Shown: positions 1,742-64,000 of the stretch, piece by piece | Position numbering within the stretch: the first letter of the stretch is position 1 | How the letters are laid out: each line of letters starts with the position of its first letter | Origin: a virus | Direction: 5' to 3' (one strand) | Length of the DNA stretch: 64,000 nt | Virus record (IMG/VR): IMGVR_UViG_3300024262_002316 | Span: 1-64,000 of that record | Position numbers and translations under genes: made by a program | Notes under the pieces: model-generated | Seen by the model: the letters and a program-made list of their open reading frames with translations, nothing else | The model's database searches: none | What the model was told of the DNA's origin: nothing

Positions 1742-1934
1742 AAGAGGAAAAAAAGAAAGAGCAAGGTTTGACCACAAAGGTGGTGCATTTGCAGATGGAT
1801 TTAAGATTGGAGAAAAGGCTGCATTTTGTAAGATAAAAGAATTTCTTTCAAAAGAGAGTCGAGAAAACTTACCATTTGATGTAATACAGAATACATTAGA
1901 CTATATAGAAAGTCAATTCAAGAATGATCGATAA
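1734..1934 (+). CDS. Small hypothetical protein
   Basis: A 66-aa basic protein that begins inside the end of the glycosyltransferase gene and overlaps the PhoH start by 11 bases, so it lies in the same transcript. No Shine-Dalgarno stands out, and translation probably relies on coupling. The sequence is mostly predicted helix with a basic N-terminus (MNRRGKKERARF). I do not recognise a family. The tight overlap on both sides is the best evidence that it is real. Confidence 0.5.
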   Translation: MNRRGKKERARFDHKGGAFADGFKIGEKAAFCKIKEFLSKESRENLPFDVIQNTLDYIESQFKNDR

Positions 1935-3651
1935 CTCCTTCCAACCTAAAACTGATGGACAAAGAAAATACATTCATAGCATAATTAATAACACTATTAC
2001 ATTCGCCACCGGCCCAGCCGGGACCGGGAAAACGATAATCGCAGTTAAGCTTGCAGTAGATGCCCTAAAGAGTGGTGAGGTTAATAAGCTAATTCTATGT
2101 AGACCTGCCGTTGCTGCTGGCGAGAAGCTTGGATTTCTTCCTGGAGATATGGCTGCTAAAGTTGACCCCTATCTAAGACCTATCTATGACTATCTCGAAG
2201 AGTTTCTGGGGGAAGACTACAGAACTTACGTTACTAGAAAGTACATTGAAGTAGCTCCTATAGCCTTTATGCGAGGGCGTGCTCAGCCAATGAATTCACT
2301 TATATCTACTAAAAATGGCTTTGTAAAGATGGGGTCTTTGAGTGTTGGTGATAAAATAACATCTTCAACCGGAAGAGATCAAATAGTTACAGGAATATTC
2401 CCACAGGGTAAAAAAGATGTATATAAAATAACATTTTCTGATAATACTTCTTGCCTATCTACAGAGGATCATCTTTGGAATGTAAAAACCAGAGAGGATT
2501 TTTCAAGATCTAAAGATTTTAGAACTATAACACTAAAAGAAATAATTGACGCTGGTGTGTGGCAAAATAAACAGAGAAGGTTTGAAATTCCTATATTGTC
2601 TGGGCCAGCTCACTTTAATAAAAATGAATTAGAAATAGACCCATATGTGCTAGGAATTATATTGGGAGATGGATGCATATCGGGTAATGCTATCTCAATT
2701 ACAAACAATGATAAAGAAATTTTTGATAATATTTCACTTAGACTAAATGAAGATTTTATTATATCTGAGCAAAACCCTGGACCTAAAAAAACTAAAACCT
2801 TCAATGTAATTAAATCTAATCACAACAATAGTTTTAAAAATGATATAAAGTCAAAATTAGAGTGTCTTGGACTAATGGGACTTAAATCATATGAAAAATT
2901 CATACCCGAAAAATACATTTATAGTGATGTAAGTGATAGATTAGACATACTAAGAGGTTTAATGGACTCAGATGGTTCTATATATCGTGATAAAAAATTC
3001 AACAGAGTAGAATACTCCTCTACTTCTGAAAGATTGGCAGATGGTGTTATTAAGATAGTTGAGAGTTTGGGGGGCATCTGCTTTAAAAGAATTAGAACAA
3101 AGGAAAATAAAAAAGGTGGTATCGCAAATGGCCGACATGTTATTCATAGAAGAGATTCGTGGACAGTTGATATTAAACTTCCTGGTTCTATAAACCCATT
3201 CTTATTAAAAAGAAAGAGTGATATGTTTGAAAAAATGGGCACATCTACTCCTAGAAGATTTATATCTAATGTTGAATTAGTGGGAAGTGAAGAGTGTCAA
3301 TGTATATCGGTGTCTTCCAATGATAAGCTTTATCTAACCGATAATTTCATAGTTACACATAACACTTTGAAGAAAGCTTTCATTCTAATGGACGAGGCTC
3401 AAAACTCTACTGTAGAGCAAATGAAGATGTTCCTTACTAGGTTGGGTGATGGCTCCAGAATGGTTATCAATGGTGACATGACTCAAAACGATCTTAAAGA
3501 AGACCAAAGATCTGGGCTAGAACATGCTTCAGGGATTCTAAGAGGAATAAGTGGACTAGGTTGGGTAGATCTTAAGAGCTGTGATGTAGTGAGACACCCA
3601 ATGGTTACTAAGATTGTAGAAGCCTATGATGAGAGAGATAAACCCCGCTAA
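1924..3651 (+). CDS. phoH: PhoH-family ATPase interrupted by an intein
   Basis: 575-aa precursor. The N-extein (1-119) carries Walker A GPAGTGKT at 30-37 and the PhoH block APIAFMRGR. The C-extein (481-575) resumes with TLKKAFILMDEAQN, the Walker B/DEAQ motif, and the conserved GDMTQ and DVVRHP segments. Joined, the exteins give a 214-aa PhoH core, normal for phage PhoH proteins, which are widespread in phages but of uncertain function. The intein occupies 120-480 (feature 2281-3363). The start overlaps the small upstream gene, and the stop shares an A with the start of the HNH gene (TAATG), so the three are coupled. Activity requires protein splicing. Confidence 0.93.
   Translation: MIDNSFQPKTDGQRKYIHSIINNTITFATGPAGTGKTIIAVKLAVDALKSGEVNKLILCRPAVAAGEKLGFLPGDMAAKVDPYLRPIYDYLEEFLGEDYRTYVTRKYIEVAPIAFMRGRAQPMNSLISTKNGFVKMGSLSVGDKITSSTGRDQIVTGIFPQGKKDVYKITFSDNTSCLSTEDHLWNVKTREDFSRSKDFRTITLKEIIDAGVWQNKQRRFEIPILSGPAHFNKNELEIDPYVLGIILGDGCISGNAISITNNDKEIFDNISLRLNEDFIISEQNPGPKKTKTFNVIKSNHNNSFKNDIKSKLECLGLMGLKSYEKFIPEKYIYSDVSDRLDILRGLMDSDGSIYRDKKFNRVEYSSTSERLADGVIKIVESLGGICFKRIRTKENKKGGIANGRHVIHRRDSWTVDIKLPGSINPFLLKRKSDMFEKMGTSTPRRFISNVELVGSEECQCISVSSNDKLYLTDNFIVTHNTLKKAFILMDEAQNSTVEQMKMFLTRLGDGSRMVINGDMTQNDLKEDQRSGLEHASGILRGISGLGWVDLKSCDVVRHPMVTKIVEAYDERDKPR
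2281..3363 (+). other. Intein in PhoH (candidate class 3, LAGLIDADG)
   Basis: A 361-aa in-frame insertion between R119 and T481. It begins with Ala, not Cys or Ser, and ends IVTHN before Thr. Block B reads STEDHLW with Trp185; block F has Cys460 in QCISVSSNDKLYLT; the +1 residue is Thr. This Trp/Cys/Thr combination with a non-nucleophilic first residue is the described signature of class 3 inteins. The homing endonuclease has two LAGLIDADG motifs with intact acids (VLGIILGDG near 242-250, ILRGLMDSDG near 342-351). Boundaries were set from homology of the flanks to uninterrupted PhoH. Confidence 0.88.
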
Positions 3652-4058
3652 TGTCGCGCTTCTCTGCCAATTGGATAGTAGAAGCATACACGACCTTTAG
3701 ACTCTCACTTGAGCAGATATCGGATATTGCTGAAAAAGAAGAAATGTACATCCAGGCCCTCCTTGAAAAAAGAGGAGTTCTAGGCGGAAACTCTAAAAAA
3801 CTCAAAAAAGTCAGTTTGAGGAAAAGAAATAAAATAGCTTCTTTGATTTATTTAGGTAATAAGTGCAAAATATGCAAATATAGCAAGTGTGAGGCTGCTC
3901 TAGAGTTTCATCATATCCACATGAAAGATAAGAGCTACAACATTTCTTCTGGCTTTAATCGCCCCTGGGCAGAGCTTAAGAGGGAATTAGATAAATGCAT
4001 GATTGTCTGCTGCAACTGTCATAAAGAAATACACTACAAGAAAAAGGGGCTTATATGA
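3651..4058 (+). CDS. HNH endonuclease, free-standing
   Basis: A 135-aa protein. The C-terminal half has a zinc-knuckle HNH arrangement: CKICKYSKC, then LEFHHIH with the catalytic His pair, then CNCHKEIHY. The N-terminal ~50 residues look like a small helical DNA-binding segment (SLEQISDIAEKEEMYIQALLEKRG). It starts on the last base of the PhoH stop codon. Free-standing HNH genes of this size in phages are usually homing endonucleases; here it sits beside an intein-bearing gene, but nothing ties it to that intein. Confidence 0.82.
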   Translation: MSRFSANWIVEAYTTFRLSLEQISDIAEKEEMYIQALLEKRGVLGGNSKKLKKVSLRKRNKIASLIYLGNKCKICKYSKCEAALEFHHIHMKDKSYNISSGFNRPWAELKRELDKCMIVCCNCHKEIHYKKKGLI

Positions 4059-4849
4059 ATTGGAAAGGTATTCCATTAAAAGAAAGATCTATTAAATTCA
4101 AAGAATTGTCACTGGGGGCGTCTCATCAAGATAAATTGAATTTAATGGAAAATATGTACAAAGATGAGGCTATCTATATAGTGTCCTGTGGCCCATCTCT
4201 GGCTGACATACCCAAAGAGAAACTATTGGAAAAATTAGGTGACAAGCCTGTATTAACTATAAAACAAGCATTTGGAAAAGTTGGGGATGTATCAGATATA
4301 CATCATTTTAACTGTAACAACTTCACAAATTACGATCTTAAAAACACCGTCTCAGTGGCTTCTGCTGGAAACAGCTCTCTAGACGGTATGCGGAAGTCAC
4401 TTTGGGGTAACATTGAAGTAGATTTATTTTTTCCAGTTATAAACAATGGCAGAACTGTTTGCCACGATAACAACTGGGAGGAAAACACTTATGCTAATAA
4501 CCCACTCATGAGGCAATGGGGTCCGGGCACACTTCAAGAGACCGCCATATTTACTGCCGTACACACTGGGGCAAAACACATAGGCTTAATTGGTATAGAT
4601 TTCGGGCCAATAGAGTGGGACGAATCGAAAGACGGCATATATCTACCACACTTCTATGACTCTGAAAATGACCAAAAGCCAGGAAACTCCCCAAAAGGAC
4701 AATTATTTCATGGTGAAAATAGATTAGTAATAGAGGGTACAAGGCAAATAAAAGAATGGTTAGATTCAAAGAAGATTAGTATTACTGTTGATAGTAATGG
4801 TAGTCATGTTCATGAATCAATAAATAGGGATTTTTGGCTATATGAATAA
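4055..4849 (+). CDS. GPSL-type protein, GT42 sialyltransferase-like or DUF115-like
   Basis: 264 aa. Two features stand out: an N-terminal nucleotide-binding-like loop IYIVSCGPSLADIP, and a central GTLQETAIFTAVHTGAKHIGLIGIDFG. The same pair (C/GNGPSL, then A..lG...I.LiG.DF) occurs in CMP-sialic-acid-dependent GT42 transferases and in the DUF115/MAF family that handles CMP-nonulosonates. I cannot separate the two from sequence alone. Its position directly before a KdsB-containing cassette suits an enzyme that transfers a CMP-activated sugar acid, but that is inference. The start overlaps the HNH stop by 4 bases; a 46-base gap follows. Confidence 0.5.
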   Translation: MNWKGIPLKERSIKFKELSLGASHQDKLNLMENMYKDEAIYIVSCGPSLADIPKEKLLEKLGDKPVLTIKQAFGKVGDVSDIHHFNCNNFTNYDLKNTVSVASAGNSSLDGMRKSLWGNIEVDLFFPVINNGRTVCHDNNWEENTYANNPLMRQWGPGTLQETAIFTAVHTGAKHIGLIGIDFGPIEWDESKDGIYLPHFYDSENDQKPGNSPKGQLFHGENRLVIEGTRQIKEWLDSKKISITVDSNGSHVHESINRDFWLYE

Positions 4850-4895: not shown

Positions 4896-5645
4896 GTGAA
4901 ACAATTGAAAACTTCTTTAGAAGAATTAAAAAAATTAGGAGTCGTAGGTGTTAAGCAGTCTACCGAAGACGAGGGCGCAGCATACGAAGATATAGCTTTA
5001 ATTAGAGATATTTCTAGAAGCTGTGGATTAAAATTAAATATCAAAATTGGAGGCTGTGAAGCTAAAACGGACATTTCTTTTTGTAATTCCATTAAAGTAG
5101 ATGGAATTGTTGCTCCAATGATTGAATCAGAATTTGCGTTACAAAAATTTACAGAAAGCATATGTTGCATAGAAGATGCTGACTTCTACATAAATATAGA
5201 AAGCAGTACAGCAGTTGACAATCTTAATAAGATTTTAGAATCAAATTATTTCAATACTTTAAATGGGGTTGTTATAGGGCGAACTGATTTAGCTAAATCT
5301 TATGGATATGAAAAAGGAATGGTAGATTCCCCAGAAATGCAAAACAAGGTATACGATATCTTGAAAACCTGTAGTAAAAAATCTCCCACCATGATAATAG
5401 GTGGCAACATTAATAAACAAAGTATTCCTTTTATTGAAAAGCTATATCGTGAGAATCTGTTACATTTCATAGAAACCAGAAACATTATTATTGATTTAAA
5501 AAAAGCTTTTGATAATGACTTAGAGGCAGTAATCAAAAAAGCTCTTATTTTTGAGTCTCTTTGGTTAGAATTTAAAGCGAATAAGTATTTAATGCAAGGA
5601 AAAGAATATATGGATAGGGCAAAACAAATTAGAGGAAGAATATGA
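4896..5645 (+). CDS. HpcH/HpaI-family aldolase (first copy)
   Basis: 249 aa, TIM-barrel aldolase/citrate-lyase superfamily. Likely ligand residues include E77 in APMIESEFAL, E102 in INIESSTA and D131 in GVVIGRTDLA, matching the Glu/Asp metal-binding pattern of pyruvate-utilising class II aldolases. The family joins pyruvate (or oxaloacetate) to an aldehyde to give 2-keto-3-deoxy acids, or runs in reverse. GTG 4896 is the first possible start after an in-frame stop; no strong Shine-Dalgarno is visible, and TTG 4905 is an alternative. The 3' end overlaps the next gene (ATGA). It is only distantly like the second aldolase at 7163, so the two may have different substrates. Confidence 0.75.
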   Translation: MKQLKTSLEELKKLGVVGVKQSTEDEGAAYEDIALIRDISRSCGLKLNIKIGGCEAKTDISFCNSIKVDGIVAPMIESEFALQKFTESICCIEDADFYINIESSTAVDNLNKILESNYFNTLNGVVIGRTDLAKSYGYEKGMVDSPEMQNKVYDILKTCSKKSPTMIIGGNINKQSIPFIEKLYRENLLHFIETRNIIIDLKKAFDNDLEAVIKKALIFESLWLEFKANKYLMQGKEYMDRAKQIRGRI

Positions 5646-6790
5646 ATAACAGATATGAACTTTTAAAAAATTGGCTACTATCAGGCAACTGCTTTAAGAT
5701 GATTTGTGGAGCAGGAAATGAAGACATAGTTCATGTAGAAAAACTATCTTTTATTTACACGCTTGCAGGAGCTAAGATTCTAGACGTTTCTGCAAACACA
5801 TCAGTTGTAAAGGCTGCTAAAAAAGGGATTGATTCTGCCCTTAGTTTTGCTGAACGCGAAAATATAAACACAATAGAACGTCCCTTCATTATGGTTAGCA
5901 TTGGTATGCCAGGAGATCATCATGTTAGAAAATCATACATTGATCCAAATACATGTGTTAGCTGTAAACTGTGTATACCAGTTTGCCCAACGGAGGCAAT
6001 ACCAACAGACTTTGTAGGGAGATTAGATTATTTTAAGTCTTTAAACGGCTCTTTGGATGAAGAAGACCAGGATAAAGAAATTGTTATCAAAGATTTATGT
6101 ATAGGTTGTGGAAAATGTAGTGCAATTTGTCCAAAACCAGGCATTATTTCTTACAGGCATAATCATAGGGAATTAGAAAAATTGTTGCCAGAATGTCTTG
6201 AAGCTGGTGCTGAGCTTTTTGAGCTTCATGCAGCAATAGATGACGATGAGCAAACCTTGAAAGAGTGGAAAATAATAAACGATATTAATTCTACTAATTA
6301 TAACTCTATTTGTTTGGATAGGCTTAATTTGGGAAACATACATTTAGAACATCGTATTGCAGAAGTGAAAAAACTTTGCGATGACAGGCTAATTGTTCAA
6401 GCAGATGGATATCCTATGAGTGGAGGAGAGGACGACTATAATACTACTCTCCAAGCTGTTGCTTGCGCTGATGTTATTAATAAAAAATTTAATATGAAGA
6501 ACAATACAAAACGCATAGTAGATAAGGTTGGAAGAACTAAAATATCTTCTAAGAAAAAATATAAAAAATCTACATCTGTTCCTATAATATTATCTGGGGG
6601 GACAAATTCTTTTTCAAAAGAGCTTGCAGACAAAACAGAGGTTAGTATTAATGGGGTAGCCATAGGAACATTTGCTAGAGATATTGTTCAAGAGTTTATA
6701 GAACCTGATGGCTTTCTTGATAATAAAGAAAAAATCATGTTAGCATATAATGTTGCTAGAGAGTTAGTAAAAAGGAATACTAATGAATAA
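5642..6790 (+). CDS. LdpA-like protein with two [4Fe-4S] motifs
   Basis: 382 aa. The N-terminus (GNCFKMICGAGNED, then FIYTLAGAKILDVSAN) matches the opening of cyanobacterial LdpA (light-dependent period), a redox-sensing Fe-S protein that feeds the circadian clock. It is followed by two ferredoxin motifs: Cys105/108/111/115 and Cys153/156/159/163. The C-terminal half keeps other LdpA landmarks, QADGYPMSGG near 253 and a barrel-like LSGGTN near 317 with NGVAIGTFARD. Recognition is from remembered family features, not a search. Position between aldolase and phosphatase, with overlapping starts and stops, argues for a metabolic job in sugar-acid synthesis rather than clock input. Confidence 0.72.
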   Translation: MNNRYELLKNWLLSGNCFKMICGAGNEDIVHVEKLSFIYTLAGAKILDVSANTSVVKAAKKGIDSALSFAERENINTIERPFIMVSIGMPGDHHVRKSYIDPNTCVSCKLCIPVCPTEAIPTDFVGRLDYFKSLNGSLDEEDQDKEIVIKDLCIGCGKCSAICPKPGIISYRHNHRELEKLLPECLEAGAELFELHAAIDDDEQTLKEWKIINDINSTNYNSICLDRLNLGNIHLEHRIAEVKKLCDDRLIVQADGYPMSGGEDDYNTTLQAVACADVINKKFNMKNNTKRIVDKVGRTKISSKKKYKKSTSVPIILSGGTNSFSKELADKTEVSINGVAIGTFARDIVQEFIEPDGFLDNKEKIMLAYNVARELVKRNTNE

Positions 6791-7163
6791 TAATAAGTTG
6801 ATCATAGCAGTAGATTTTGATGGAACTTTGTGCGAGTTCTCATTTCCCGACATAGGGGAACAAAAGGAAAAGCATAAAGCTTTAATGGATAGATTGATAC
6901 AATTAAAAAACGAGGGTCACAAGCTCATCTTATGGACTAATAGAGGTGACAATGAAGAATACCCAGTATTGACCGAGGCTATTGAATGGTGCAAGGAAAA
7001 AGGATTAGAGTTTGATTCTGTTAATGAGAATTTGCCTAATCAAAAAAAGCTATCTGGCTACAGCCCAAAGATTATGGCCGATGTTTACATTGATGATAAA
7101 GCCCTAGAGTTTAATAACAGCGATTCTATCAAAAAAACCTTAGATTTTTTAGCGAATTTATAA
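6783..7163 (+). CDS. HAD-superfamily phosphatase
   Basis: 126 aa. Motif I is DFDGTL with nucleophile D11 and acid D13; motif II is WTNRG (51-55); motif III/IV are represented by the C-terminal YIDDKA (D104, D105). The cap domain is minimal, as in small phage HAD enzymes. In the KDO pathway a HAD phosphatase (KdsC) removes phosphate from the 8-phosphate; this gene sits where such a step would be needed, but it is not clearly KdsC. It overlaps LdpA by 8 bases and the next aldolase by one base (TAATG). Confidence 0.8.
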   Translation: MNNNKLIIAVDFDGTLCEFSFPDIGEQKEKHKALMDRLIQLKNEGHKLILWTNRGDNEEYPVLTEAIEWCKEKGLEFDSVNENLPNQKKLSGYSPKIMADVYIDDKALEFNNSDSIKKTLDFLANL

Positions 7164-7900
7164 TGAATATAAAAGATAAATTAAAATCTGGCGAGAACGT
7201 ATATGGTACATGGTGTGTAATTCCATCACCTGAAGTTGTTAATGTAATATCAAAATCTGGACTAGATTTTATTATTGTTGATATGGAGCATGGGCCTATG
7301 GATCATGTTACAGCTCAACGTATGGTTACATCTACTCAATCTGAAAAATGCAACGCTATTGTTAGGGTTCCAAGTAATAATGAGTCAGATATATTAAAGT
7401 CATTAGATATTGGTTCGGATGGTATAATAATACCTCATGTTAATACAGTTGAAGATGTACAAAAGTGCGTAAGTTATTCTAAATACTCACCAATAGGGAA
7501 TAGAGGCTATACCCCTTACACTAGATCTGGTGGATATCACAATAAAGTTGACTACAAAAATAAAGAAAATGAAAAAGGTTTTGTCGGGGTGATTCTTGAG
7601 AGTACAGAGGGTCTTAGTAATATTAGCTCAATAGTTGACAATGAACATGTGGACATGGTTTACATTGGAGCCTATGACCTGTCTGCTAGTTTAGGTTGTT
7701 CTGTAAATGACAAGAAAGTTCTGGATGAACTTGAAAGATGTGCCGAAATAACTAGAAATGCTAACAAGTCAATTGGCTGCTTGTTTCATGATCAAAAAGA
7801 ATTAAATCTTTTTAAGAACATGGGAGTAAACTTTTTGGTCTATGGAGTAGACAGCTCTGTATTGTATAATGGGTTTTCAGAAATTAAAAAATGGAGGTAG
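7163..7900 (+). CDS. HpcH/HpaI-family aldolase (second copy)
   Basis: 245 aa and a more canonical member than the copy at 4896. The family's catalytic signature is present: DMEHGP with general base His43, RVPS with Arg68, the metal ligand Glu146 in ILESTEG, and Asp172 in YIGAYDLSASLG. Known relatives include 4-hydroxy-2-oxoheptanedioate aldolase and 2-dehydro-3-deoxyglucarate aldolase; all handle pyruvate plus an aldehyde. Within this operon it is the best candidate to build the 2-keto-3-deoxy acid that the next gene would activate. The actual aldehyde partner cannot be inferred. Confidence 0.88.
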   Translation: MNIKDKLKSGENVYGTWCVIPSPEVVNVISKSGLDFIIVDMEHGPMDHVTAQRMVTSTQSEKCNAIVRVPSNNESDILKSLDIGSDGIIIPHVNTVEDVQKCVSYSKYSPIGNRGYTPYTRSGGYHNKVDYKNKENEKGFVGVILESTEGLSNISSIVDNEHVDMVYIGAYDLSASLGCSVNDKKVLDELERCAEITRNANKSIGCLFHDQKELNLFKNMGVNFLVYGVDSSVLYNGFSEIKKWR

Positions 7901-7906
7901 ATAACA

Positions 7907-8665
7907 ATGTTTGACAAAAAAGTCGTAGTTATTATACCATCTAGGTATAAATCTACTAGATTTCCCGGTAAACCTTTAGTGGACATACTAGGAAAGCCTA
8001 TGGTTATTAGGGTAGCAGAATCATCAGCAGAAGCAGTTGGCAAAGATAGCGTCTATGTAGCAACAGATGACAAGAGAATAGGGGAAAGGGCAATAGAACA
8101 CGGATTCAATGTAATATACACATCAGAAGAATGTTTAACGGGAACTGACAGGGTGGCAGAAGCTTCTTTGGATATAGATGCGGATGTAATTGTTAATGTT
8201 CAGGGAGATGAAGTTTTGCTGGACCCTAGTAATATATTGAAGGTCATTAAAGAAAAAATAAATAGTGAAAACTCAGTAGTGACCTGTATGGCGAAATTAA
8301 CACCTTCAGAAGATCCAGGCGATTTAAAAACATGTAAAGTGGTTACTAATCTAAAAAAAGAACTAATGTATGCATCAAGAGCCCCTATTCCTTCAAGCAA
8401 GAGTGGCATCGTTGAAAATGCCTACAAGCAAATATGTGTATATGCTTTTAATAAAAAACAGCTTAAAGATTACTACGATAAAGGGAAGCAACAAGGCAAG
8501 ACGCCATGTGAGTATTCTGAAGACATAGAGATTATTCGTTTTTTAGAGATGGGAATAAAAGTAAAAATGGTTGAAGTTGAGGGTGGAACTTTGGCTGTTG
8601 ATTTCCCTGAAGACGTAAAAGAAGTAGAAAAAATACTTAAGTCGAAAGATTCGATGTATAAATGA
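7907..8665 (+). CDS. kdsB: CMP-KDO synthetase-like cytidylyltransferase
   Basis: 252 aa, normal length for 3-deoxy-manno-octulosonate cytidylyltransferase. The CTP loop IPSRYKSTRFPGKPL is at 10-24, then ATDDKRI, TGTDR (78-82), NVQGDE with metal ligand Asp101, and EDIEIIRFLE. The reaction joins CTP and a 2-keto-3-deoxy acid to give the CMP sugar and pyrophosphate. A strong GGAGG at 7892-7896 precedes ATG 7907. KdsA, KdsD and KdsC relatives are not visible here; the neighbouring aldolases and HAD enzyme may replace them, so the substrate may not be KDO itself. Confidence 0.9.
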   Translation: MFDKKVVVIIPSRYKSTRFPGKPLVDILGKPMVIRVAESSAEAVGKDSVYVATDDKRIGERAIEHGFNVIYTSEECLTGTDRVAEASLDIDADVIVNVQGDEVLLDPSNILKVIKEKINSENSVVTCMAKLTPSEDPGDLKTCKVVTNLKKELMYASRAPIPSSKSGIVENAYKQICVYAFNKKQLKDYYDKGKQQGKTPCEYSEDIEIIRFLEMGIKVKMVEVEGGTLAVDFPEDVKEVEKILKSKDSMYK

Positions 8666-8886
8666 AGATAAGCAGATTTCTTAATCTTATTCCATATTAC
8701 AAGAATAAAGCAAAAAAAGAAGAGAATAAGGTTAGGGTTCACAACCTAATAGATGATATTGATGATCAATTTTGTGAAATAAAAAGTAAACTAGCTATGG
8801 GCTCTATTGATGAAGATCAAGCTGTTGAGGATATTGTTCTTTTAATGAAACACTTTTTAGATAACTCTAACAATCAAGGTATCTAG
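8662..8886 (+). CDS. Small hypothetical protein closing the sugar operon
   Basis: 74 aa, starting in an ATGA overlap with the cytidylyltransferase stop. The sequence is mainly charged helix (KISRFLNLIPYYKNKAKK, then an acidic stretch IDDIDDQF). No family recognised. Its stop lies 20 bases inside the end of the convergent minus-strand gene, and I see no terminator between the two, so the opposing transcripts probably overlap. Confidence 0.5.
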   Translation: MKISRFLNLIPYYKNKAKKEENKVRVHNLIDDIDDQFCEIKSKLAMGSIDEDQAVEDIVLLMKHFLDNSNNQGI

Positions 8887-31177: not shown

Positions 31178-31791
31178 TATTTCACCTTCCTTTGCAATAT
31201 GGTAGCTATTCCTGCGCTGACTTCTTTTTTACTTATACTTCTAGCTATCTTATCAAATATTTTAGTTCTAGGTAATTTAAAGAGACCAGTTCCTTCTACC
31301 ATTCTTCCTTCTTTAGATCTAGAGAATTTTCCACCGCCGTCTTCGAACGCATAGCCTGTTATACTAAGACCGTTCTCAAGCCAATCGACCCAAGATACTG
31401 TCTGTACAACTTCAAACGCACCAGTTTTAGAATTAAGCTTAGTTAGATCGTGTTGAGCAACCTCGTGATTTTTCAAGGCGTCAAAGTCAATCCATTCTAA
31501 AACAACAGTATCTCTATTAGCTCTTATTTTAGTTATCTTTTTATCTGTTTTTATGATATTAATCACTCTATCGATATCTGTGACTTCACTATCTGTAAAA
31601 CCAAATTCTCCACGTAATGAACCTTTTATGTCCTTGAATTCTTTTGATTCTGCAAATTTGTCACCAAGCATTTCATTCACTTTAACAAGGTATTTTTCAA
31701 GATCTTTAATAACTTGCTTTTGCTTATTATTAATAATCTCCTTAAGTTTTCTTTCAAACCCTCCTGGGTCAGATAGGGTCACTCTAGCCAT
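31177..31791 (-). CDS. Neck protein, possibly HK97 gp10-like
   Basis: 204 aa. The N-terminal ~70 residues are charged helix (FERKLKEIINNKQKQVIKDL), followed by a beta region with SWVDWLENGLSITGYAF and a basic C-terminus. Helix-then-beta layout with a W-x-x-WLE-x-G segment is seen in minor head-tail joining proteins. Assigned mostly from order. Overlaps both neighbours by one base, so strictly coupled. Confidence 0.45.
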   Translation of the reverse strand: MARVTLSDPGGFERKLKEIINNKQKQVIKDLEKYLVKVNEMLGDKFAESKEFKDIKGSLRGEFGFTDSEVTDIDRVINIIKTDKKITKIRANRDTVVLEWIDFDALKNHEVAQHDLTKLNSKTGAFEVVQTVSWVDWLENGLSITGYAFEDGGGKFSRSKEGRMVEGTGLFKLPRTKIFDKIARSISKKEVSAGIATILQRKVK

Positions 31792-33521
31792 TATTCAATT
31801 CTTTTCCAAAAAGAAGTTAAAAATGTCCTAGTCTGCAAACCCTTTTGAATCGGGTCGCCTTCTAGTTGGTAGAAGTTGCCCTCTATTTTAACTTTGGTTG
31901 CATTTTCTACATCACTTCTTGATTCTATTCTGGTCTTAAGTCTAGCAACCTCAGTTTTTTTGATTCCAGTTTCTTCAAAGGCCCAGTCGTCAGGATTGTA
32001 CTTAATAAGAGCTGTCCATATTTTGGTGTCCTCTGTTAGTAGTTTTCCTCTCCCTGCACAGATAGGGCATATAGCCCCAAGGGGGAAAGACCTGTTTAGA
32101 GATGTATTTATAGTGTTAGGATTCCCAGAGTTGTATTTACCGTCTGATCTTCCATCTGGTGAAATCCCGCAATTTCCGACTGCAACGCCATTTGCAATAT
32201 AACTGTGAGTATTTGTTACCCTAAAGTTATAAACCTTTGCTCTTGAAATGTAATCTATGCTTGACAACATTGGTCTAGTTTCATAGTGACATTTTACGCG
32301 CCTCTTAGTTAAATTGCTGTTTGGGTTAGTGGAGTAACTAATTCTATATGTATCTTTTCTAGAAATTCCCTTTTTATCCACATAAGAATCAGATTTTGAA
32401 ACATAAGGCAAGTACTTATTAGATTGCCAGATAGAGAAGACCTGATTACATAAAATATTTGAAATGGTTGTTAATCTAACAACATTAGTATTTTTGTATT
32501 TGACAATATTTCCATCTCCAGCAACCATATATTCTACTAATTTTGTTAATTGCTTTAAGTTGAGATTATTGTATAAATAATCAGGTATTTGTTTATTTTC
32601 AGATGTGTGTCCAATTTGTTCTAATAATAGTTTAGAAAATTCTGTACTATAAAAGTTAACAAGTAGATTTTTAGCATTTTCTCTAAACTCTTTAACTCCA
32701 GTTATTCCAAATTTTTCATTGAAAATTCTTATAAGCTTATCTGCAACCCATTCCTCTTTCTCGGAATTCAGACAGTACGAAAATTGTCTGGGATATCCAG
32801 AGCCCAGATGTACACAGCCTTCAGCTATGAACCAACCAATTGCAAACAAAACATCATCATCTATTTTAATGTCGTCATTGAAAGCCACTCTTGGCTTGTA
32901 GTTCTTTTTACAAACATTCTTTACGGAATGTACGCTAATTCCTGTTTTATTAGATATATACATAGGCTCAGCCCCCGCTAAAGCCAACTCTCTTACCTCT
33001 TCAACTTGGTTGATAGTAAAACCTTTGTTTGTGTAATTCTCCCACTTTATATTTATAAATTTTAAATCTTCATCTGAATATTTAGTAAGAGGAAATACCA
33101 ACATGTCTCCTGTTTTAAGTTCTTCTGAGGGTACTTTTACAAAATTACCGCTTCTTTCAACAACAACTTTGTGATTGCTGGTTGAAGAAAACATGTTAGT
33201 ATACCCTTCTATTTTTAATTTAGTAAAGCTGCCGCTATAATCTCTACTGTAAAGTTTATCGACCGTTTGAATTTGGCCTAGGTGATCTAAAACTGAATCT
33301 CCTATTTTTATATCTTCTATATTCTTATATCCAAGTGGTGTTTTTACTAAAGTTCCTGCCTCAAAACAATTGGGGCAGTCACTTGTAGTTGGAGTCAGAT
33401 AAAGTGTGACGGGGTAGCCCAGGTCTTTTATTAGCTGATTTATTGCATCTTCATACAAACCCTGTTGGGTTGAATCAAGGTACAAGCCCTTAGTAGGTAG
33501 AATGCTATCATCTTCAGCCAT
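31791..33521 (-). CDS. Zinc-ribbon neck/virion protein interrupted by an intein
   Basis: 576-aa precursor. Exteins: residues 1-51 (ending TTSDCPN) and 451-576 (starting CGISPDGRSDG). Joined, they give a 177-aa protein with a CPNC ... CPICAGRGK zinc-ribbon pair, then a beta-rich C-terminus (VENATKVKIEGNFYQLEG). The intein lies inside the first CxxC, so the zinc site can form only after splicing. It belongs to the head-tail connection block by position; the specific role is unknown. Stop overlaps the next ATG by one base. Confidence 0.75.
   Translation of the reverse strand: MAEDDSILPTKGLYLDSTQQGLYEDAINQLIKDLGYPVTLYLTPTTSDCPNCFEAGTLVKTPLGYKNIEDIKIGDSVLDHLGQIQTVDKLYSRDYSGSFTKLKIEGYTNMFSSTSNHKVVVERSGNFVKVPSEELKTGDMLVFPLTKYSDEDLKFINIKWENYTNKGFTINQVEEVRELALAGAEPMYISNKTGISVHSVKNVCKKNYKPRVAFNDDIKIDDDVLFAIGWFIAEGCVHLGSGYPRQFSYCLNSEKEEWVADKLIRIFNEKFGITGVKEFRENAKNLLVNFYSTEFSKLLLEQIGHTSENKQIPDYLYNNLNLKQLTKLVEYMVAGDGNIVKYKNTNVVRLTTISNILCNQVFSIWQSNKYLPYVSKSDSYVDKKGISRKDTYRISYSTNPNSNLTKRRVKCHYETRPMLSSIDYISRAKVYNFRVTNTHSYIANGVAVGNCGISPDGRSDGKYNSGNPNTINTSLNRSFPLGAICPICAGRGKLLTEDTKIWTALIKYNPDDWAFEETGIKKTEVARLKTRIESRSDVENATKVKIEGNFYQLEGDPIQKGLQTRTFLTSFWKRIE
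32172..33368 (-). other. Intein in neck protein (LAGLIDADG)
   Basis: 399 aa, residues 52-450. Starts CFEAGTLVKTPLGYKNIEDI (block A), block B SSTSNHKVVV, and ends ANGVAVGN before Cys. The penultimate residue is Gly, not the usual His. Two endonuclease motifs are FAIGWFIAEGC near 226-236 and LVEYMVAGDGN near 328-338. An HTH-like segment (INQVEEVRELALAGAE, then IGISVHSVKNVCKK-like) lies between block B and the endonuclease. Confidence 0.88.
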
Positions 33522-49106: not shown

Positions 49107-52100
49107 TCAGACTGGAGAGCTTCCAAATTCTTCTGCCCATCCACCCATAGCGTCGTCATCATTGTATCTTCTTCTTGCCACTATTTTATCATTTAAAGTC
49201 ATGTCTTCATACTTTGAAGCCATATAGTTAGACAAAAGAAGTGAACTGTATCTATCCTTATGTTTAGTGGTGTCGTCAGTTTTGGAGTTCATGGGTTTTA
49301 GATTAAAGTGTTTGCGCCCAGTAGTTGTATATGTTACAGTAATTGATAGTAATTCTTTTTTAAGTTCAGATATTTCATAAATTATATCCTCATACTCCTC
49401 ATTTGTGTAATCCGAGTGAGGTCTAGGGAACATTAACTTCTTATCTTCTATGTTCTTTTGTAGTAAGGAGTTAGCTTCCTCAATCCAACTACTATTAAAA
49501 GCCTGCATGTTCAGAATACGAATAGCTTTATCATCTCTAGAGTCATCCTCTATTCTTACAATCTTAGGCTCACTATCTTTCTTTATGTCGTATCCATCTG
49601 GAGACTTGTCTATGTTTAACAGTTCTTCTATAGCCATACCTCCTCCGCCGGAGTCCATGTTTATACCTATGACATTGAAATCTCTCATTAGTTGTCTCAT
49701 CTTCGCGGCAGCAAAAGAATATTTCTTGTTTTGACAAGTCCAATGATAAACTACTTTATTGGGCTGTCCTATCTCAATTATGCTAATAGAAAACCTATCT
49801 ATTGTTCTAGCAGGGTCTACTCCCATAATGTAGTTTCTATCTTTTCTGCCCTTTACTTTTATCTGAAATCCATCAAAGGAATTAGCTGTGGCTTCTTTGA
49901 GATCTCTAGCCTTGAAGAACCCAGCCGAGTCATCTGCAAATTCAGCGTTATACTCCATATCAAATATATGTTTAGGCATAGTAGCTTTAGCAGCCTGGAT
50001 TAGTTTTCTATCCATCATACCTTCTGGGAGTTGATCATATCTATATTTTACAATACAATAATCTCTAAAGTCAACCTCATACTCATCGTCTGATCCTAAG
50101 AGGTCAGTAAACTCATTAGCTTTGCCTTTAAGTTGATTTGCGATAATTGCAGCATAGTGTTTGTATTGGTGATAAAATGGTCCATTGGTGTATCCAGCAG
50201 TTCCAGCTAATATTATCTTGTTTCCAATACTTATGAACTCATTGTCAAGAGAATCCTCTTCTCCGTCTTGAGCGGCCTCTTTTGCCTTCTGCCAAGGATC
50301 TGATTGAGTTGCACCAAAGCCTCTGATTACCTTGTTAAATATCTCTGAGTCTATGCTGTCGAATTCGTCTGCCATAATTACGTGACCACGTTCTCCCCTA
50401 ATCTTCTCACCATTACCTAGTGGTAGAGCTGTTATAGAAGATCCGCAAACACTATATCTACAGGTATCTGTTCCAATTCTGGGCTCACCATCAGACATAG
50501 ATCTTAGTATTGGCGCTTTATCATATATTCTTTTAATTTCAGAGAAGATCAACTTGGAGTTGTGACTGATTAAGCCATTTGAAAAATAATCATGCACTTT
50601 GTCAACTGAAAAATCATATGTTTTATTTCTCTTGTTTTCCTTTGAGACAATTTTACTATAGTGAAAATCGCTTCTAATCATTGATTGAAGCTTATTCAAA
50701 CTGTCACAGATTATATTGTTGTTTTGACAGTAAGATATTATTCTTTCAACATAAGTTCTAGTGAAGCTGCTTTTTTCATAGTTAGAACAAATAAGAAGAC
50801 TTCTTATTGGATCTGAATTAACTCTATTTTCTTTTCTAAAGCTAGTTATAGAATCCATCACTTCTCTCATATGTTTACCAATATTAGGAATAATATCTCT
50901 ATTGCTCCTTCTGTTTGTTGACATGATTTTATCACAAACAAAATTAAGTTTGTCCATTTTTCTAGATAAAGAGAATCCTATTTCCTCTTTAAACTTCAAT
51001 ATAGACTCCTTTGAACATATTTCTAATTGAAATAGGGTTCTTTTTCTTCCTGAATTGTTTTCAGACAGCCCGGCAATTATGCCAAAGTTAAGAAGAGCAG
51101 TTTGCAGTTGCCTAGCTAAGACATCTGACGTTGTGGCGAAAGAAACCTTGTTCTTGGTAACTTGATCATATACGCCGCCATCTGAATCAAATAGGCTTCT
51201 TATGAAACTGGACTGAACAGACTTCGGAGATTGAAGAATTTGACTTGGTATAAATTTTTCATAAGACTTTTTCCCTGCTAGTCCAAATCTCTCAAAGAGA
51301 CCCCAACCTACGACGGAACCCTTTGATATTTGGGTCACACCATCTTTCTTGATGCTAATATTTGGGCTTTTGTTGAAATACCTACAATATAATTTTTCCA
51401 TTATATCTAAATATTCCTTTTCTTTGTTTATAAACAACAAGTAGTTCTTTTGAGTTAAGCAGCCATCTCCCACTAAGGATCCCATAAAATATGCAAGATC
51501 TTCATCTATAACCTGAGGGAAGCTACATCTATCATATGGATCATCTGGAATCATGTCTCCGATAAATACACTATCTTTGTTCCAAAGTTCAGGCTTAGAT
51601 ACTACAGAGTAGTCCCCTTCTTTTACGTCTTTTAACTCACGATACTCTAGCTCTCCGTCACCATTAACTATTAGTATTTTATGTCCAGTAGAACCCTCTA
51701 GTTGGACTCCAAGCTCTGACTTAATCTTTATAGTATCTTGCTCTTCGTTTTCCCAAAAGTCAAGACATTTTTGGTACCCCTCAGATGACACAATGTACTC
51801 AGGCTTAGATTTAAGTTGGTCAACTCTTATCATTCCTTTGTTAGTCATTATATAAGTATCTCCAGTTACACATTGCCTGAAAGATGCTGACACTAGTATT
51901 ATCCTTGTATTTGGGAACATTACTGCGTGATAAACTGCATATATCGCCAGCATCATGGTGTTGTGAGATATCATTCCATTGGAAACAAATGAGTGTGTTC
52001 CTGGTATGTTGAAATCGTATGTTACACACCTTGAGTCTTCTTTATGTTCGACTTTTCTATATATGTAATTAGAGTCTATAAGTCTAGATAGTTCAATAGT

Positions 52101-53480
52101 ACTCCCAGATGTCCACTTGTTCTCTACACAGATATTGAGAAGTCTGTATATTTTCTTTTTTGTAAGCCCATACGTGGAAGAATTATATTCTGAAAACCCA
52201 CTAGGAGATAACCCTTTTACTCCTTGTTCTTTTAACTCTGAAACTATTTTTCTAGCTACATCGGCAAAAGGATATATGTCAACATTTGAGTTAAACTCGG
52301 TTTCGCTCATTCTGTTGCAAATATTATCTAGTTGCTCCTTTTTCCTTGGAAGTCTAAATCCTATGTCTTTCCTAAATTTAAGTAGATTTTCTCCATATAT
52401 TGAAACTACATAGGCTTTCCCGAAATCACTATTAGTTTTCTTTTCTCTAAGACTAGAGTCTATTCCCATATTCAATAAAATTGCTTGAACTTGGGATGCT
52501 AAAGTTTTGGAAACTGAACAAAATGTGACCATTCTGTCCCCTTCACAGCCCCCATCTGAGTCAAATAGTCCACTTAAAAACGCACCAAGTCTCTTTTTAT
52601 CCCCTGCTCTTATTTTTACAGGTATTTCTTTGTCATAAGATAAGCTGTAATTTAGATCAAATTTATCTTCAATATATTTTCTATTCTTTTTTCCGTAGCA
52701 CTTGTAATCATAATTAGCGACATGTTTTAGGTACATGCCATGTTCTTCCATTGTTTTTCTAGCTGACTCTATAATGAAATCATCTGCACTGCTTAGGGTT
52801 GTCATTCTGTCGCAGGATAAACCTCCATCTCCGGTCATTAGTCCGACGAAGTAAAAGTCATCTTCCGATAAGTCTCCAGTGTAAACTGGGTACACATTAG
52901 AGCCATATGACAATTTAACAATGTCACCAACTTCAACTTCATCTAATCTTCTCCAGGTTGGTGTACCAAGCTCATTATCTATTATCTGAATTTTATGCTC
53001 TGGAGTTCCTTCCAGTTCAGACCCATTGGATAGCCTTATAAGCTTTGTATTATCCTCTGCGTTTACAACAGAGTATGCCGTATTCTCATAGTATTCGCCG
53101 TTGAATACACTGTGAGACTCTGGCCTCACTATGTCTCGATTATCTTTCCCTATAACTTCTTCTATTTTCATCATTCCACTAGAAGTATGAACTAGAGTGT
53201 CCCCTCTTACGCACTTGCCCGCTCCACGAGACAAAAGCAGCATCGGGAATTTAAACTTAAGCATTGCAAGAATCATAGATAATTGATGTTCCAATAAGTT
53301 AATATTCATTATATATTTGATGCCAAAAATAGGAGAGTAGAACGGATTGGAGAGCTTATAAAACTCTGTCAACTCGTCTTGCTCTTTAAGTTCATTTGGG
53401 GCATCCATTAATGGATTCTTAAGTAGTGCGGCTGGAGGTAATCCCTTCATCCAGTCATAGTCAGGGTTGAATATCCCCAT
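49107..53480 (-). CDS. terL: Terminase large subunit with two inteins
   Basis: 1457-aa precursor. Exteins: 1-89, 508-536 and 975-1457, giving a 601-aa terminase. Walker A is SRGAGK|T, split by intein 1; IILVSASFRQ|SKLIF, an ATPase-coupling segment, is split by intein 2. Walker B is HVIMADEF at 1033-1040. The RNase-H-like nuclease has acidic residues D1222 (IMGVDPA), D1276 (INMDSGG) and D1409 (HKDRYS). All motifs needed for ATPase and cleavage are present once spliced. It lies between ERCC4 nuclease and portal genes, overlapping the former by one base. Confidence 0.94.
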   Translation of the reverse strand: MGIFNPDYDWMKGLPPAALLKNPLMDAPNELKEQDELTEFYKLSNPFYSPIFGIKYIMNINLLEHQLSMILAMLKFKFPMLLLSRGAGKCVRGDTLVHTSSGMMKIEEVIGKDNRDIVRPESHSVFNGEYYENTAYSVVNAEDNTKLIRLSNGSELEGTPEHKIQIIDNELGTPTWRRLDEVEVGDIVKLSYGSNVYPVYTGDLSEDDFYFVGLMTGDGGLSCDRMTTLSSADDFIIESARKTMEEHGMYLKHVANYDYKCYGKKNRKYIEDKFDLNYSLSYDKEIPVKIRAGDKKRLGAFLSGLFDSDGGCEGDRMVTFCSVSKTLASQVQAILLNMGIDSSLREKKTNSDFGKAYVVSIYGENLLKFRKDIGFRLPRKKEQLDNICNRMSETEFNSNVDIYPFADVARKIVSELKEQGVKGLSPSGFSEYNSSTYGLTKKKIYRLLNICVENKWTSGSTIELSRLIDSNYIYRKVEHKEDSRCVTYDFNIPGTHSFVSNGMISHNTMMLAIYAVYHAVMFPNTRIILVSASFRQCVTGDTYIMTNKGMIRVDQLKSKPEYIVSSEGYQKCLDFWENEEQDTIKIKSELGVQLEGSTGHKILIVNGDGELEYRELKDVKEGDYSVVSKPELWNKDSVFIGDMIPDDPYDRCSFPQVIDEDLAYFMGSLVGDGCLTQKNYLLFINKEKEYLDIMEKLYCRYFNKSPNISIKKDGVTQISKGSVVGWGLFERFGLAGKKSYEKFIPSQILQSPKSVQSSFIRSLFDSDGGVYDQVTKNKVSFATTSDVLARQLQTALLNFGIIAGLSENNSGRKRTLFQLEICSKESILKFKEEIGFSLSRKMDKLNFVCDKIMSTNRRSNRDIIPNIGKHMREVMDSITSFRKENRVNSDPIRSLLICSNYEKSSFTRTYVERIISYCQNNNIICDSLNKLQSMIRSDFHYSKIVSKENKRNKTYDFSVDKVHDYFSNGLISHNSKLIFSEIKRIYDKAPILRSMSDGEPRIGTDTCRYSVCGSSITALPLGNGEKIRGERGHVIMADEFDSIDSEIFNKVIRGFGATQSDPWQKAKEAAQDGEEDSLDNEFISIGNKIILAGTAGYTNGPFYHQYKHYAAIIANQLKGKANEFTDLLGSDDEYEVDFRDYCIVKYRYDQLPEGMMDRKLIQAAKATMPKHIFDMEYNAEFADDSAGFFKARDLKEATANSFDGFQIKVKGRKDRNYIMGVDPARTIDRFSISIIEIGQPNKVVYHWTCQNKKYSFAAAKMRQLMRDFNVIGINMDSGGGGMAIEELLNIDKSPDGYDIKKDSEPKIVRIEDDSRDDKAIRILNMQAFNSSWIEEANSLLQKNIEDKKLMFPRPHSDYTNEEYEDIIYEISELKKELLSITVTYTTTGRKHFNLKPMNSKTDDTTKHKDRYSSLLLSNYMASKYEDMTLNDKIVARRRYNDDDAMGGWAEEFGSSPV
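50559..51872 (-). other. Intein 2 in large terminase (LAGLIDADG)
   Basis: 438 aa, residues 537-974. Starts CVTGDTYIMTNKGMIRVDQL, block B LEGSTGHKILI, ends SNGLISHN before Ser975. Endonuclease motifs YFMGSLVGDGC (664-674) and FIRSLFDSDGG (759-769) are intact. Its C-terminal region EEIGFSLSRKMDKLNFVCDK matches that of intein 1 closely, so they are paralogous. Confidence 0.93.
51960..53213 (-). other. Intein 1 in large terminase (LAGLIDADG)
   Basis: 418 aa, residues 90-507. Starts CVRGDTLVHTSSGMMKIEEV, block B EGTPEHKIQI, ends SNGMISHN before Thr508. Endonuclease motifs FVGLMTGDGGL (211-221) and FLSGLFDSDGG (301-311) are intact. It sits between Lys and Thr of the P-loop, so the unspliced protein cannot bind ATP normally. 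Confidence 0.94.
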
Positions 53481-56068: not shown

Positions 56069-57082
56069 TTACCTTAGTCCTGAGCTTCCGAATCCCTTCT
56101 CTCCGCGACCACTCTTTCCAAGATGACCGATCTCTTTCTCTTGAAAATCAAAGTCTACGATAGGAGTCGGAACAAGTTGAACTAACCTTGATGGTAGCTC
56201 TAAATCTGGCATAGACTCATCTATCTTAATCAAAGGGACTTTTATCTCTCCTCTATACGATCTGTCAATTATCCCAACTCCATTAGCTAGTATGTAGCCA
56301 CTCTTTATGATCGAAGAACGTGGAGCCAGAATAAAGTACCAACCCAGATCAGGCTTAACAATTATACCAGTAGAGTACATTTCTACCTTGCCAATGTTCC
56401 CACTTTTTTCTAAAAGAGTGATGTCGAAGCCTGAGTCAGATGCCCTAGCCTTAAATGGGTTTACTGCATCTTCTCTTGTTTTAGCAAATTCAAAGCTGAA
56501 TTTTGCATTATAGCTTTTGATATTTGATATATTTATTCTGGCTACTGAATATTCTTTATATGTATATTTATCATGAAAGCCAGAATTTCTATATAGAGTA
56601 GTTAAAAAATCTAGCTTTTCATGTTCGGGCCATCTGTAAGTGTTTCCACCTTCGAATATGGGCTTAGATTCAACTATAGATTCTATAAATTTAAGTTGAC
56701 TATCAGTTAGTCTTATAGAGGTTGTATCCTCTTCTCCAAACATTCTGTTAAATTCATACATGCCTCTAATGAATGCAATTGTATCAATCTTGTTCTTTGA
56801 TGTAGGTATTCCTTCAGAGTCTAGTAGTCCGCTTTTTAGCAATGAATCTACGTCTTGTTCACTGTTAGAATGCATGACATCTCTGCCTAGGAATAAATTC
56901 ACAGTATTGAAATATTTATTACAATAGGTTTTAATACCTAGTTTTTTAATCTCACTACATACTTCTTCTACTGTGTCAGAATATTTGATACTTATTCTTA
57001 TGTCGTAGCCTTGCGTTCTGAAATTTTTAGAAGCTTTAACAAAACCTAGTGAGTAATGCAGCTTTTCATTATTTGATTTCAC
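56069..57082 (-). CDS. dut: dUTPase with N-terminal LAGLIDADG-like domain
   Basis: 337 aa from GTG 57082, which has GGAGG upstream; the open frame extends to 57130. All five trimeric dUTPase motifs are in the C-terminal 150 residues: RASDSGFDITL, APRSSIIKSG, NGVGIIDRSYRGEIKV, SRLVQLV and GKSGRGEKGFGSSG. The N-terminal ~190 residues resemble a LAGLIDADG endonuclease fold: YSLGFVKASKNF, then RISIKYSDTVEEVCSEIKKL, and a second motif FIRGMYEFNRM. Both catalytic acids are missing, so this domain is probably dead or serves binding. Overlaps the reductase gene end. Confidence 0.82.
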   Translation of the reverse strand: MKSNNEKLHYSLGFVKASKNFRTQGYDIRISIKYSDTVEEVCSEIKKLGIKTYCNKYFNTVNLFLGRDVMHSNSEQDVDSLLKSGLLDSEGIPTSKNKIDTIAFIRGMYEFNRMFGEEDTTSIRLTDSQLKFIESIVESKPIFEGGNTYRWPEHEKLDFLTTLYRNSGFHDKYTYKEYSVARINISNIKSYNAKFSFEFAKTREDAVNPFKARASDSGFDITLLEKSGNIGKVEMYSTGIIVKPDLGWYFILAPRSSIIKSGYILANGVGIIDRSYRGEIKVPLIKIDESMPDLELPSRLVQLVPTPIVDFDFQEKEIGHLGKSGRGEKGFGSSGLR

Positions 57083-63109: not shown

Positions 63110-64000
63110 TTACTGCCCTTCTAGGAGGTGGGCTCCATTCTCTTTAAAACCCACTGAAGTGTTCTTTATGAATATAGCATTTTCTCTAAGTTCTTTTAGG
63201 TTTAATGCGTTACAATATGTCATTCCTGATCTCACACCGGCACAGAGTGTTTGTATGACAGATGAAGCTGGGCCTTTCATAGAAACCAAGGTAGACTCGC
63301 CTTCTGCTGCAACATCTCTATAAGAGTCGCCTCTCCAATTCATCATTGCGTCTTTTGAGGCCATTCCACGGTAAACTTTGTATCTAGTTCCATTCTCTTT
63401 AACGATAATTTGTCCAGGGGTTTCTTCTGTTCCAGACAAGAGAGATCCAGTTATAATAGAGGATGCTCCAGCAGCTAGTGCTTTAATTGCGTCTCCAGAA
63501 TTTCTAACCCCACCATCACAAATTAGAGGAATTCCGTCTTCTCCAGTTATAGAAAAACAATCCATTAAAGAGGTTAAAAGTGGAACGCCTGCCCCTGCTA
63601 TTTTTCTTGTTATGCAAACACTACCATTTCCAATTCCAACCTTTATAGCATCAGCTCCAGCATCTACTAAAATTTCAGTAGTTCTAGCGGTAGCTACATT
63701 TCCAGCGATAACTTGGAATGGGTAATTATGCTTAATGTACTTAATAGCTTCTACAACTCTATCACACGCACCATGAGCTACATCAACTGTTACAACTTTG
63801 TTGACAAGGTTTCGAGGATCTATTCTGTAGATTCTTTCAAGAGTATCTACATAGTCATTAGAGATACCAACAGAAAAAGAGATGGGGTTGACCCCTATTT
63901 CGATAGCCTTCTCAATTTGTTTGGCCACTAAGTCATCGGACATGAAGCGATGGAGTATCCCTACGCCACCAGCATTCTGCATAGCTTTCATCATCTCGTG
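63110..64000 (-). CDS. IMP dehydrogenase/GMP reductase family protein, partial
   Basis: The frame runs to the window edge, so the N-terminus is missing. Visible parts: GGVGILHRFMS, VDVAHGACDR, the phosphate and catalytic-Cys loop GIGNGSVCITRKIAGAG, GVPLL, ICDGGVRNSGDAIKALAAGA, the flap YRGMASKDAM and AAEGESTLVSMKG. These fit both IMPDH (guanine synthesis) and GMP reductase; G-I-G-x-G-S-V-C-x-T-R-K leans toward GMP reductase. It starts the visible nucleotide-metabolism block and is followed 3 bases later by the phosphoesterase gene. Confidence 0.85.
   Translation of the reverse strand, partial: HEMMKAMQNAGGVGILHRFMSDDLVAKQIEKAIEIGVNPISFSVGISNDYVDTLERIYRIDPRNLVNKVVTVDVAHGACDRVVEAIKYIKHNYPFQVIAGNVATARTTEILVDAGADAIKVGIGNGSVCITRKIAGAGVPLLTSLMDCFSITGEDGIPLICDGGVRNSGDAIKALAAGASSIITGSLLSGTEETPGQIIVKENGTRYKVYRGMASKDAMMNWRGDSYRDVAAEGESTLVSMKGPASSVIQTLCAGVRSGMTYCNALNLKELRENAIFIKNTSVGFKENGAHLLEGQ

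What the first reader, a model, noticed from the sequence alone, without database searches (positions are those of the whole stretch)
5642..6790. LdpA-like clock/redox protein in a phage
The 382-aa protein has the LdpA-type N-terminus, two complete CxxCxxCxxxC motifs and the QADGYPMSGG and SGGTN landmarks I associate with LdpA. LdpA is known as a redox-sensing clock-input protein in cyanobacteria. A viral homologue inside a sugar-acid operon suggests either an ancestral enzymatic role for LdpA-type proteins or acquisition from a photosynthetic host.
Basis: partly seen in the sequence, partly recalled or inferred. Interest (0 to 1): 0.75.

Follow-up and report, generated by a model that had tools for sequence, protein, structure and literature searches.

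The report
LdpA-family enzyme in viral sugar operon
A virus carries a relative of LdpA, a protein known as a light sensor of the cyanobacterial body clock, but here it sits with sugar-making genes, and its relatives in gut bacteria that have no photosynthesis and (in 75 of 76 genomes tested) no clock gene kaiB suggest that LdpA is at root a metabolic enzyme.

Summary
The 382-aa ORF at 5642-6790 has two complete CxxCxxCxxxC motifs, QADGYPMSGG and SGGTN, and matches LdpA over nearly its full length (NCBIfam E=2.8e-43; both LdpA Pfam domains above their cut-offs). It falls well short of the LdpA equivalog cut-off (148 against 450 bits), so it is an LdpA-family protein, not the clock orthologue.

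Origin from a photosynthetic host is not supported. The viral clade groups with non-photosynthetic Cyanobacteriota (100/99 support), and none of 22 viral records searched carries psbA. LdpA homologues occur in 188 of 192 genomes of one gut order. Of 77 low-scoring LdpA genomes, none has PsaA/PsaB; of 76, only one has KaiB.

The AlphaFold model is a TIM barrel with a two-cluster ferredoxin inserted after strand 3. Polar residues at the barrel mouth are kept in viral, gut and photosynthetic LdpA alike, which looks like an active site.

In viruses LdpA always stands with a HAD phosphatase (22 of 22 contigs) and nearly always with an HpcH/HpaI-like aldolase. That cassette carries either a CMP-sugar-acid synthetase or a thiamine enzyme, never both (15, 63, 0). 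I propose LdpA is a redox enzyme making a 2-oxo sugar acid; the exact reaction is unproven.

The parts
5642..6790 (+). LdpA-family protein: TIM barrel with inserted two-[4Fe-4S] ferredoxin-type segment, 382 aa
5954..5986 (+). first CxxCxxCxxxC motif (residues 105-115)
   Evidence: cysteines invariant
6098..6130 (+). second CxxCxxCxxxC motif (residues 153-163)
   Evidence: cysteines invariant
6398..6427 (+). QADGYPMSGG (residues 253-262), end of barrel strand 6; Q253, D255, G256, M259, S260, G261 conserved across all LdpA groups
6593..6607 (+). SGGTN (residues 318-322), end of barrel strand 7, phosphate-grip-like
   Evidence: phosphate role is inference
4896..5645 (+). ald1: HpcH/HpaI-like pyruvate/PEP-type barrel enzyme, conserved partner upstream of LdpA
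   Evidence: Pfam HpcH_HpaI 28.5 bits; model pLDDT 94.4; nearest solved folds SbnG, HpaI, pyruvate kinase
6783..7163 (+). HAD-A: BT0820-family HAD-type phosphatase, next to LdpA in all viral contigs with intact LdpA
   Evidence: NF046079 E=2e-26, below its equivalog cut-off
7163..7900 (+). ald2: HpaI/GarL-type class II pyruvate aldolase
   Evidence: Pfam HpcH_HpaI 99.9 bits; TIGR02311 E=5e-40, below equivalog cut-off
7907..8665 (+). KdsB-type CMP-3-deoxy-ulosonate cytidylyltransferase
   Evidence: NF009905 265.8 bits over cut-off 255
4055..4849 (+). MptE/DUF115-like protein, possible glycosyltransferase
   Evidence: Pfam MptE-like E=5e-6, below cut-off; assignment is a lead
8662..8886 (+). 74-aa ORF overlapping the end of the KdsB gene, unknown

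Best explanation
The ORF encodes a member of the LdpA family that works as an iron-sulfur enzyme, not as a clock component. It acts with ald1 (a pyruvate/PEP-type barrel enzyme) and HAD-A (a small phosphatase) to build a 2-oxo sugar acid, probably on a phosphorylated intermediate held by the SGGTN loop, with the two ferredoxin-type clusters carrying electrons to or from the barrel active site. HAD-A then removes the phosphate. In this window the acid is activated as a CMP sugar by the KdsB-type enzyme and presumably added to a glycan by neighbouring transferases. In many related viruses the same module instead feeds a thiamine enzyme, which would decarboxylate the 2-oxo acid and transfer its acyl unit. 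Shown: family membership, barrel-plus-ferredoxin anatomy (predicted model), conserved cassette, conserved barrel-mouth residues. Inferred: that it is catalytic, its redox role, its substrate and the order of steps.
For: Profile match to LdpA. TIM barrel with Fe-S insertion, pLDDT 85.5, pTM 0.84. K19, D48, D92, H94, K97, E194, H196, W209, Q253, D255, S260, GGTN, R346 and all eight cysteines at least 90% identical across viral, gut, other non-photosynthetic and photosynthetic LdpA. In 84 distinct viral contigs with ald1 or LdpA, intact LdpA occurs in 22 and always with HAD-A (Fisher p=4e-15), and CMP synthetase and thiamine enzyme never co-occur (15, 63, 0; p=4e-12); both act on 2-oxo acids. The ald1-LdpA-HAD-ald2-KdsB order recurs in virus L092 and in L025, a bacterial contig with capsule genes. 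Cellular operons: LdpA and ald1 adjacent with a slight overlap in G124; LdpA, epimerase, ald1, thiamine enzyme, GtrA-like gene and glycosyltransferase in G452. L095 keeps only a 57-aa LdpA remnant and also lacks HAD-A.
Against: No biochemistry. Best PDB matches are only generic class II aldolase-type barrels (TM by query 0.42-0.45), so the fold gives no reaction. In photosynthetic Cyanobacteriota LdpA lies beside other genes, not sugar genes, and ald1 is in only 63 of 192 genomes of the gut order while LdpA is in 188, so LdpA must also work without ald1. Contigs are related, so p-values overstate independence. L090 and L091, near-neighbours of L087/L089, run ald1 plus CMP synthetase without LdpA.
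Confidence: 0.55

Rival explanations
1. It is a redox sensor or regulator that tunes the phage or host pathway, as LdpA is thought to do for the clock, with the barrel as a non-catalytic ligand sensor.
For: Cyanobacterial LdpA is described as a redox sensor affecting CikA abundance (PMC13421787). Both cluster motifs are kept.
Against: Polar barrel-mouth residues are as conserved as the cysteines, in lineages lacking KaiB and photosystem genes. Constant pairing with enzyme genes of one pathway, and no regulator or clock gene seen in the cassettes.
Confidence: 0.15
2. It is an electron-transfer partner only: the ferredoxin part passes electrons to another enzyme of the cluster (for example an RfbH-type 3-dehydrase) and the barrel is a docking scaffold.
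For: Ferredoxin-type motifs; an RfbH equivalog stands in some cassettes (L009) and an FAD reductase-like gene follows HAD-A in L015.
Against: RfbH-type and reductase genes are absent from the window operon and from the CMP-type cassettes read here. A scaffold does not explain conserved polar residues.
Confidence: 0.12
3. It was acquired from a photosynthetic cyanobacterial host and modulates its clock or redox state during infection.
For: LdpA was reported only from Cyanobacteria (PMC5520375).
Against: About 28% mean identity to photosynthetic LdpA against 38% to gut-type LdpA; viral clade joins non-photosynthetic lineages with 100/99 support and photosynthetic LdpA is a separate clade; no psbA-type gene in 22 viral records; no match in INPHARED phages.
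Confidence: 0.05

Closest known systems
LdpA (light dependent period A) of Synechococcus elongatus and other photosynthetic cyanobacteria, NF045992 / PF12617 / PF25160
   Same: Full-length profile match, both Fe-S motifs, QADG..MSGG and SGGTN landmarks, 49 columns at least 90% identical across groups
   Different: 148 bits against an equivalog cut-off of 450; about 28% identity; virus-clade insertions between the clusters and at residues 283-307; enzyme-gene neighbours instead of the genes beside cyanobacterial ldpA
LdpA homologues of non-photosynthetic Cyanobacteriota (Gastranaerophilales and others)
   Same: Same conserved residues; nearest clade; some in operons with ald1 and sugar genes
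   Different: 38% mean identity; most stand in other gene contexts; in two cellular genomes (G039, G051) the copy falls inside the viral clade
DUF561 / Ycf23 (PF04481)
   Same: N-terminal barrel strands match; above cut-off for three gut-type LdpA proteins, near cut-off for the window protein
   Different: The match covers only the first 50-60 residues; the name Ycf23 for DUF561 is from memory
CMP-Kdo and other nonulosonate pathways
   Same: Pyruvate aldolase, HAD phosphatase and KdsB-type synthetase in one operon
   Different: Extra LdpA and ald1 steps; no Kdo-8-phosphate synthase seen in the operon; product unknown

Membership tests
LdpA family (homology level, Pfam domains) | PF12617 and PF25160 above gathering scores | tested here: met
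   28.7 over 22.2 and 33.7 over 27.6 bits
LdpA family (homology level, Pfam domains) | two CxxCxxCxxxC [4Fe-4S] motifs | tested here: met
   residues 105-115 and 153-163; invariant in relatives
LdpA family (homology level, Pfam domains) | clusters actually assembled | not testable with these tools
   needs UV-vis/EPR of purified protein
LdpA clock equivalog (NF045992) | score over the 450-bit equivalog cut-off | tested here: not met
   148.4 bits
LdpA clock equivalog (NF045992) | falls in the photosynthetic LdpA clade | tested here: not met
   viral clade joins non-photosynthetic lineages; photosynthetic clade separate at 100/99
LdpA clock equivalog (NF045992) | interaction with clock proteins, effect on CikA abundance | not testable with these tools
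   described for cyanobacteria in PMC13421787
Class II FBP-aldolase-like barrels | confident fold match over the barrel | tested here: inconclusive
   E 1e-5 but TM by query only 0.42-0.45
HpcH/HpaI aldolases (ald1) | PF03328 above gathering score | tested here: met
   28.5 over 25 bits; fold nearest SbnG and HpaI
KdsB (CMP-Kdo synthetase) | score over a curated KdsB model | tested here: inconclusive
   NF009905 subfamily model passed, 265.8 over 255; the stricter TIGR00466 equivalog not reached, 127.9 under 155.2

The most novel reading that the evidence does not exclude
LdpA is the founding name of an iron-sulfur TIM-barrel enzyme family that predates its clock role: a new redox enzyme of 2-oxo sugar-acid biosynthesis, spread by viruses as a cassette with ald1 and HAD-A, with the cyanobacterial clock protein a specialised or moonlighting descendant that may still be catalytic.
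Probability: 0.4. Interest if true: 0.85.

Novelty: new variant of a known kind. Interest (0 to 1): 0.62.

Why it matters
How LdpA acts is an open question: a 2026 review says the mechanism by which it controls CikA is unknown (PMC13421787), and it was reported only from Cyanobacteria (PMC5520375). Finding it near-universal in gut Cyanobacteriota without photosystem genes, and in viruses inside a sugar-acid cassette, turns 'what does LdpA do' into a testable enzymology question with named partners (ald1, HAD-A, KdsB or thiamine enzyme). It also names a widespread viral 2-oxo-acid module with two mutually exclusive outlets.

Tried and rejected
Photosynthetic origin: disfavoured by tree, identity and lack of psbA. 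Chloroflexi as a host: L025 lies in a MAG labelled Chloroflexi, but 300 other genomes of its GTDB phylum lack the gene and the contig's neighbours look like a Bacteroidota capsule region (my reading), so the contig is probably misbinned. INPHARED gave no match and BFVD no match at E<=0.001. PDB by sequence gave only ferredoxin-type matches; by fold only generic barrels. The first idea that KdsB is a constant partner was rejected: other viruses have a PseF/NeuA-like synthetase or a thiamine enzyme instead. HAD-A without LdpA in six contigs may be cross-hits to the other HAD type. Bacteria outside Cyanobacteriota and Chloroflexota were reached only by one pattern scan, so wider bacterial distribution is untested. 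The 2005 EMBO J LdpA paper is not held.

Full report
What was checked. It matches NF045992 (circadian clock protein LdpA) at E=2.8e-43 over residues 12-355, but with 148 bits against an equivalog cut-off of 450. Both LdpA Pfam domains pass their gathering scores. The record is a 65,267-base virus with phage tail genes.

Surroundings. The gene is one of five tightly packed genes on the same strand: ald1 (weak HpcH/HpaI), LdpA, a BT0820-type HAD, an HpaI-type aldolase and a KdsB-type cytidylyltransferase above one curated cut-off. Upstream are a glycosyltransferase-like gene and an MptE/DUF115-like gene.

Relatives in viruses. Two scans of IMG/VR gave 16 loci at 58-66% identity, and a scan with ald1 added five more LdpA loci at 45-50% identity (L085, L087, L088, L089, L092), one further close relative (L098) and a 57-aa remnant (L095). 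L092 has exactly the window's five-gene order. Over 84 distinct viral contigs holding ald1 or LdpA, intact LdpA is in 22, always with HAD-A (p=4e-15). A CMP synthetase (KdsB or PseF/NeuA-like) is in 15, a thiamine enzyme in 63, both in none (p=4e-12), neither in 6. These contigs are related to one another, so the p-values are descriptive. L095 has lost most of LdpA, lacks HAD-A and carries a different HAD. L090 and L091, close to L087/L089 around the site, lack LdpA and carry that other HAD. LdpA and HAD-A thus look like one unit that comes and goes.

Relatives in cells. A pattern scan of GTDB genomes found four loci. L025, in a MAG labelled Chloroflexi, has the full five-gene order next to capsule-type genes; no other of 300 genomes of that phylum has LdpA, and the neighbours look like Bacteroidota to me, so the contig is probably misbinned. 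The others are a named Gastranaerophilales MAG and two unnamed gut bacteria. NF045992 then matched 144 of 146 genomes in the phylum of the Gastranaerophilales MAG, only 56 above the equivalog cut-off. Of 77 genomes below it, none has PsaA/PsaB while all three photosynthetic controls do. Of 76 such genomes one has KaiB. In the order of G124, LdpA is in 188 of 192 genomes and ald1 in 63. In G124 LdpA and ald1 are adjacent with a slight overlap. In G452 LdpA, an epimerase, ald1, a thiamine enzyme, a GtrA-like gene and a glycosyltransferase form one strand run. In one gut genome (L026) LdpA converges on a cytidylyltransferase fused to an RraA-like aldolase. So the link between LdpA and oxo-acid sugar genes exists in cells too.

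Phylogeny. In a careful tree (57 rows), all viral sequences, L025 and two cellular copies (G039, G051) form one clade (100/99), joined to the gut clade (100/99); photosynthetic LdpA is a separate clade (100/99) on a long branch. Deep branching is unresolved and the root unknown. Mean identities: virus to gut 38%, virus to photosynthetic 28%. None of 22 viral records searched has a psbA/psbD-type gene; many are fragments.

Anatomy and mechanism. The AlphaFold model (pLDDT 85.5, pTM 0.84) has the strand-helix order of a TIM barrel, with the two cluster motifs between barrel strands 3 and 4. Forty-nine columns are at least 90% identical over 66 sequences from all groups, among them the eight cysteines and K19, D48, D92, H94, K97, E194, H196, Q253, D255, S260, GGTN and R346; most lie at strand ends, where barrel enzymes bind substrate. 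The first barrel strands resemble DUF561 (above cut-off in three gut sequences). PDB fold matches are generic barrel enzymes, best the class II aldolases, at low TM. ald1 models as an SbnG/HpaI/pyruvate-kinase-like barrel, so an enolate-type pyruvate or PEP chemistry is likely. Because both alternative partners of the cassette, CMP synthetases and thiamine enzymes, act on 2-oxo acids (general knowledge of these families), the simplest common account is that ald1, LdpA and HAD-A make such an acid, LdpA supplying a redox step on a phosphorylated intermediate. This last part is inference.

Comparison with the literature. LdpA, Pex and CdpA were reported only from Cyanobacteria among 11,264 genomes (PMC5520375). 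A 2026 review describes LdpA as an Fe-S sensor of plastoquinone redox state whose mechanism is unknown (PMC13421787). No held paper mentions LdpA with Melainabacteria, with phage and iron-sulfur, or with TIM barrel.

Verdict.

Noticed in passing
window 1924-3651: PhoH-like ATPase interrupted by an intein with a LAGLIDADG endonuclease domain (PhoH and LAGLIDADG_3 matches).
   Followed up: partly
window 49107-53480, 57069-61970 and 31791-33521 (-): Unusually long terminase-like and ribonucleotide-reductase-like ORFs and a smaller structural-region ORF appear to carry several further intein-like inserts, read by eye from the translations.
   Followed up: no
viral loci L084-L163: The ald1 family is widespread in viruses (103 candidate loci); its cassettes carry a thiamine enzyme or a CMP synthetase but never both, mostly without LdpA.
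   Followed up: partly
L095:5714-5950: Decayed LdpA: the first codons read as LdpA, then the similarity is lost, in a cassette that has a different HAD.
   Followed up: partly
L026:8967-10289: In a gut bacterial genome with LdpA, a cytidylyltransferase fused to an RraA/HMG-aldolase-like domain converges on LdpA.
   Followed up: partly
L065, L069, L083, L080 around LdpA: In both photosynthetic and some non-photosynthetic Cyanobacteriota LdpA neighbours a similar roughly 540-aa protein that I read as an R3H/AAA ATPase of Ycf45 type; not searched against a library.
   Followed up: no
L025 / L064: MAG labelled Chloroflexi (PAOV01000028) carries a contig whose capsule genes look like Bacteroidota: probable misbinning.
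   Followed up: partly
window 63110-63994: IMP dehydrogenase/GMP reductase-like ORF at the end of the window, read by eye.
   Followed up: no
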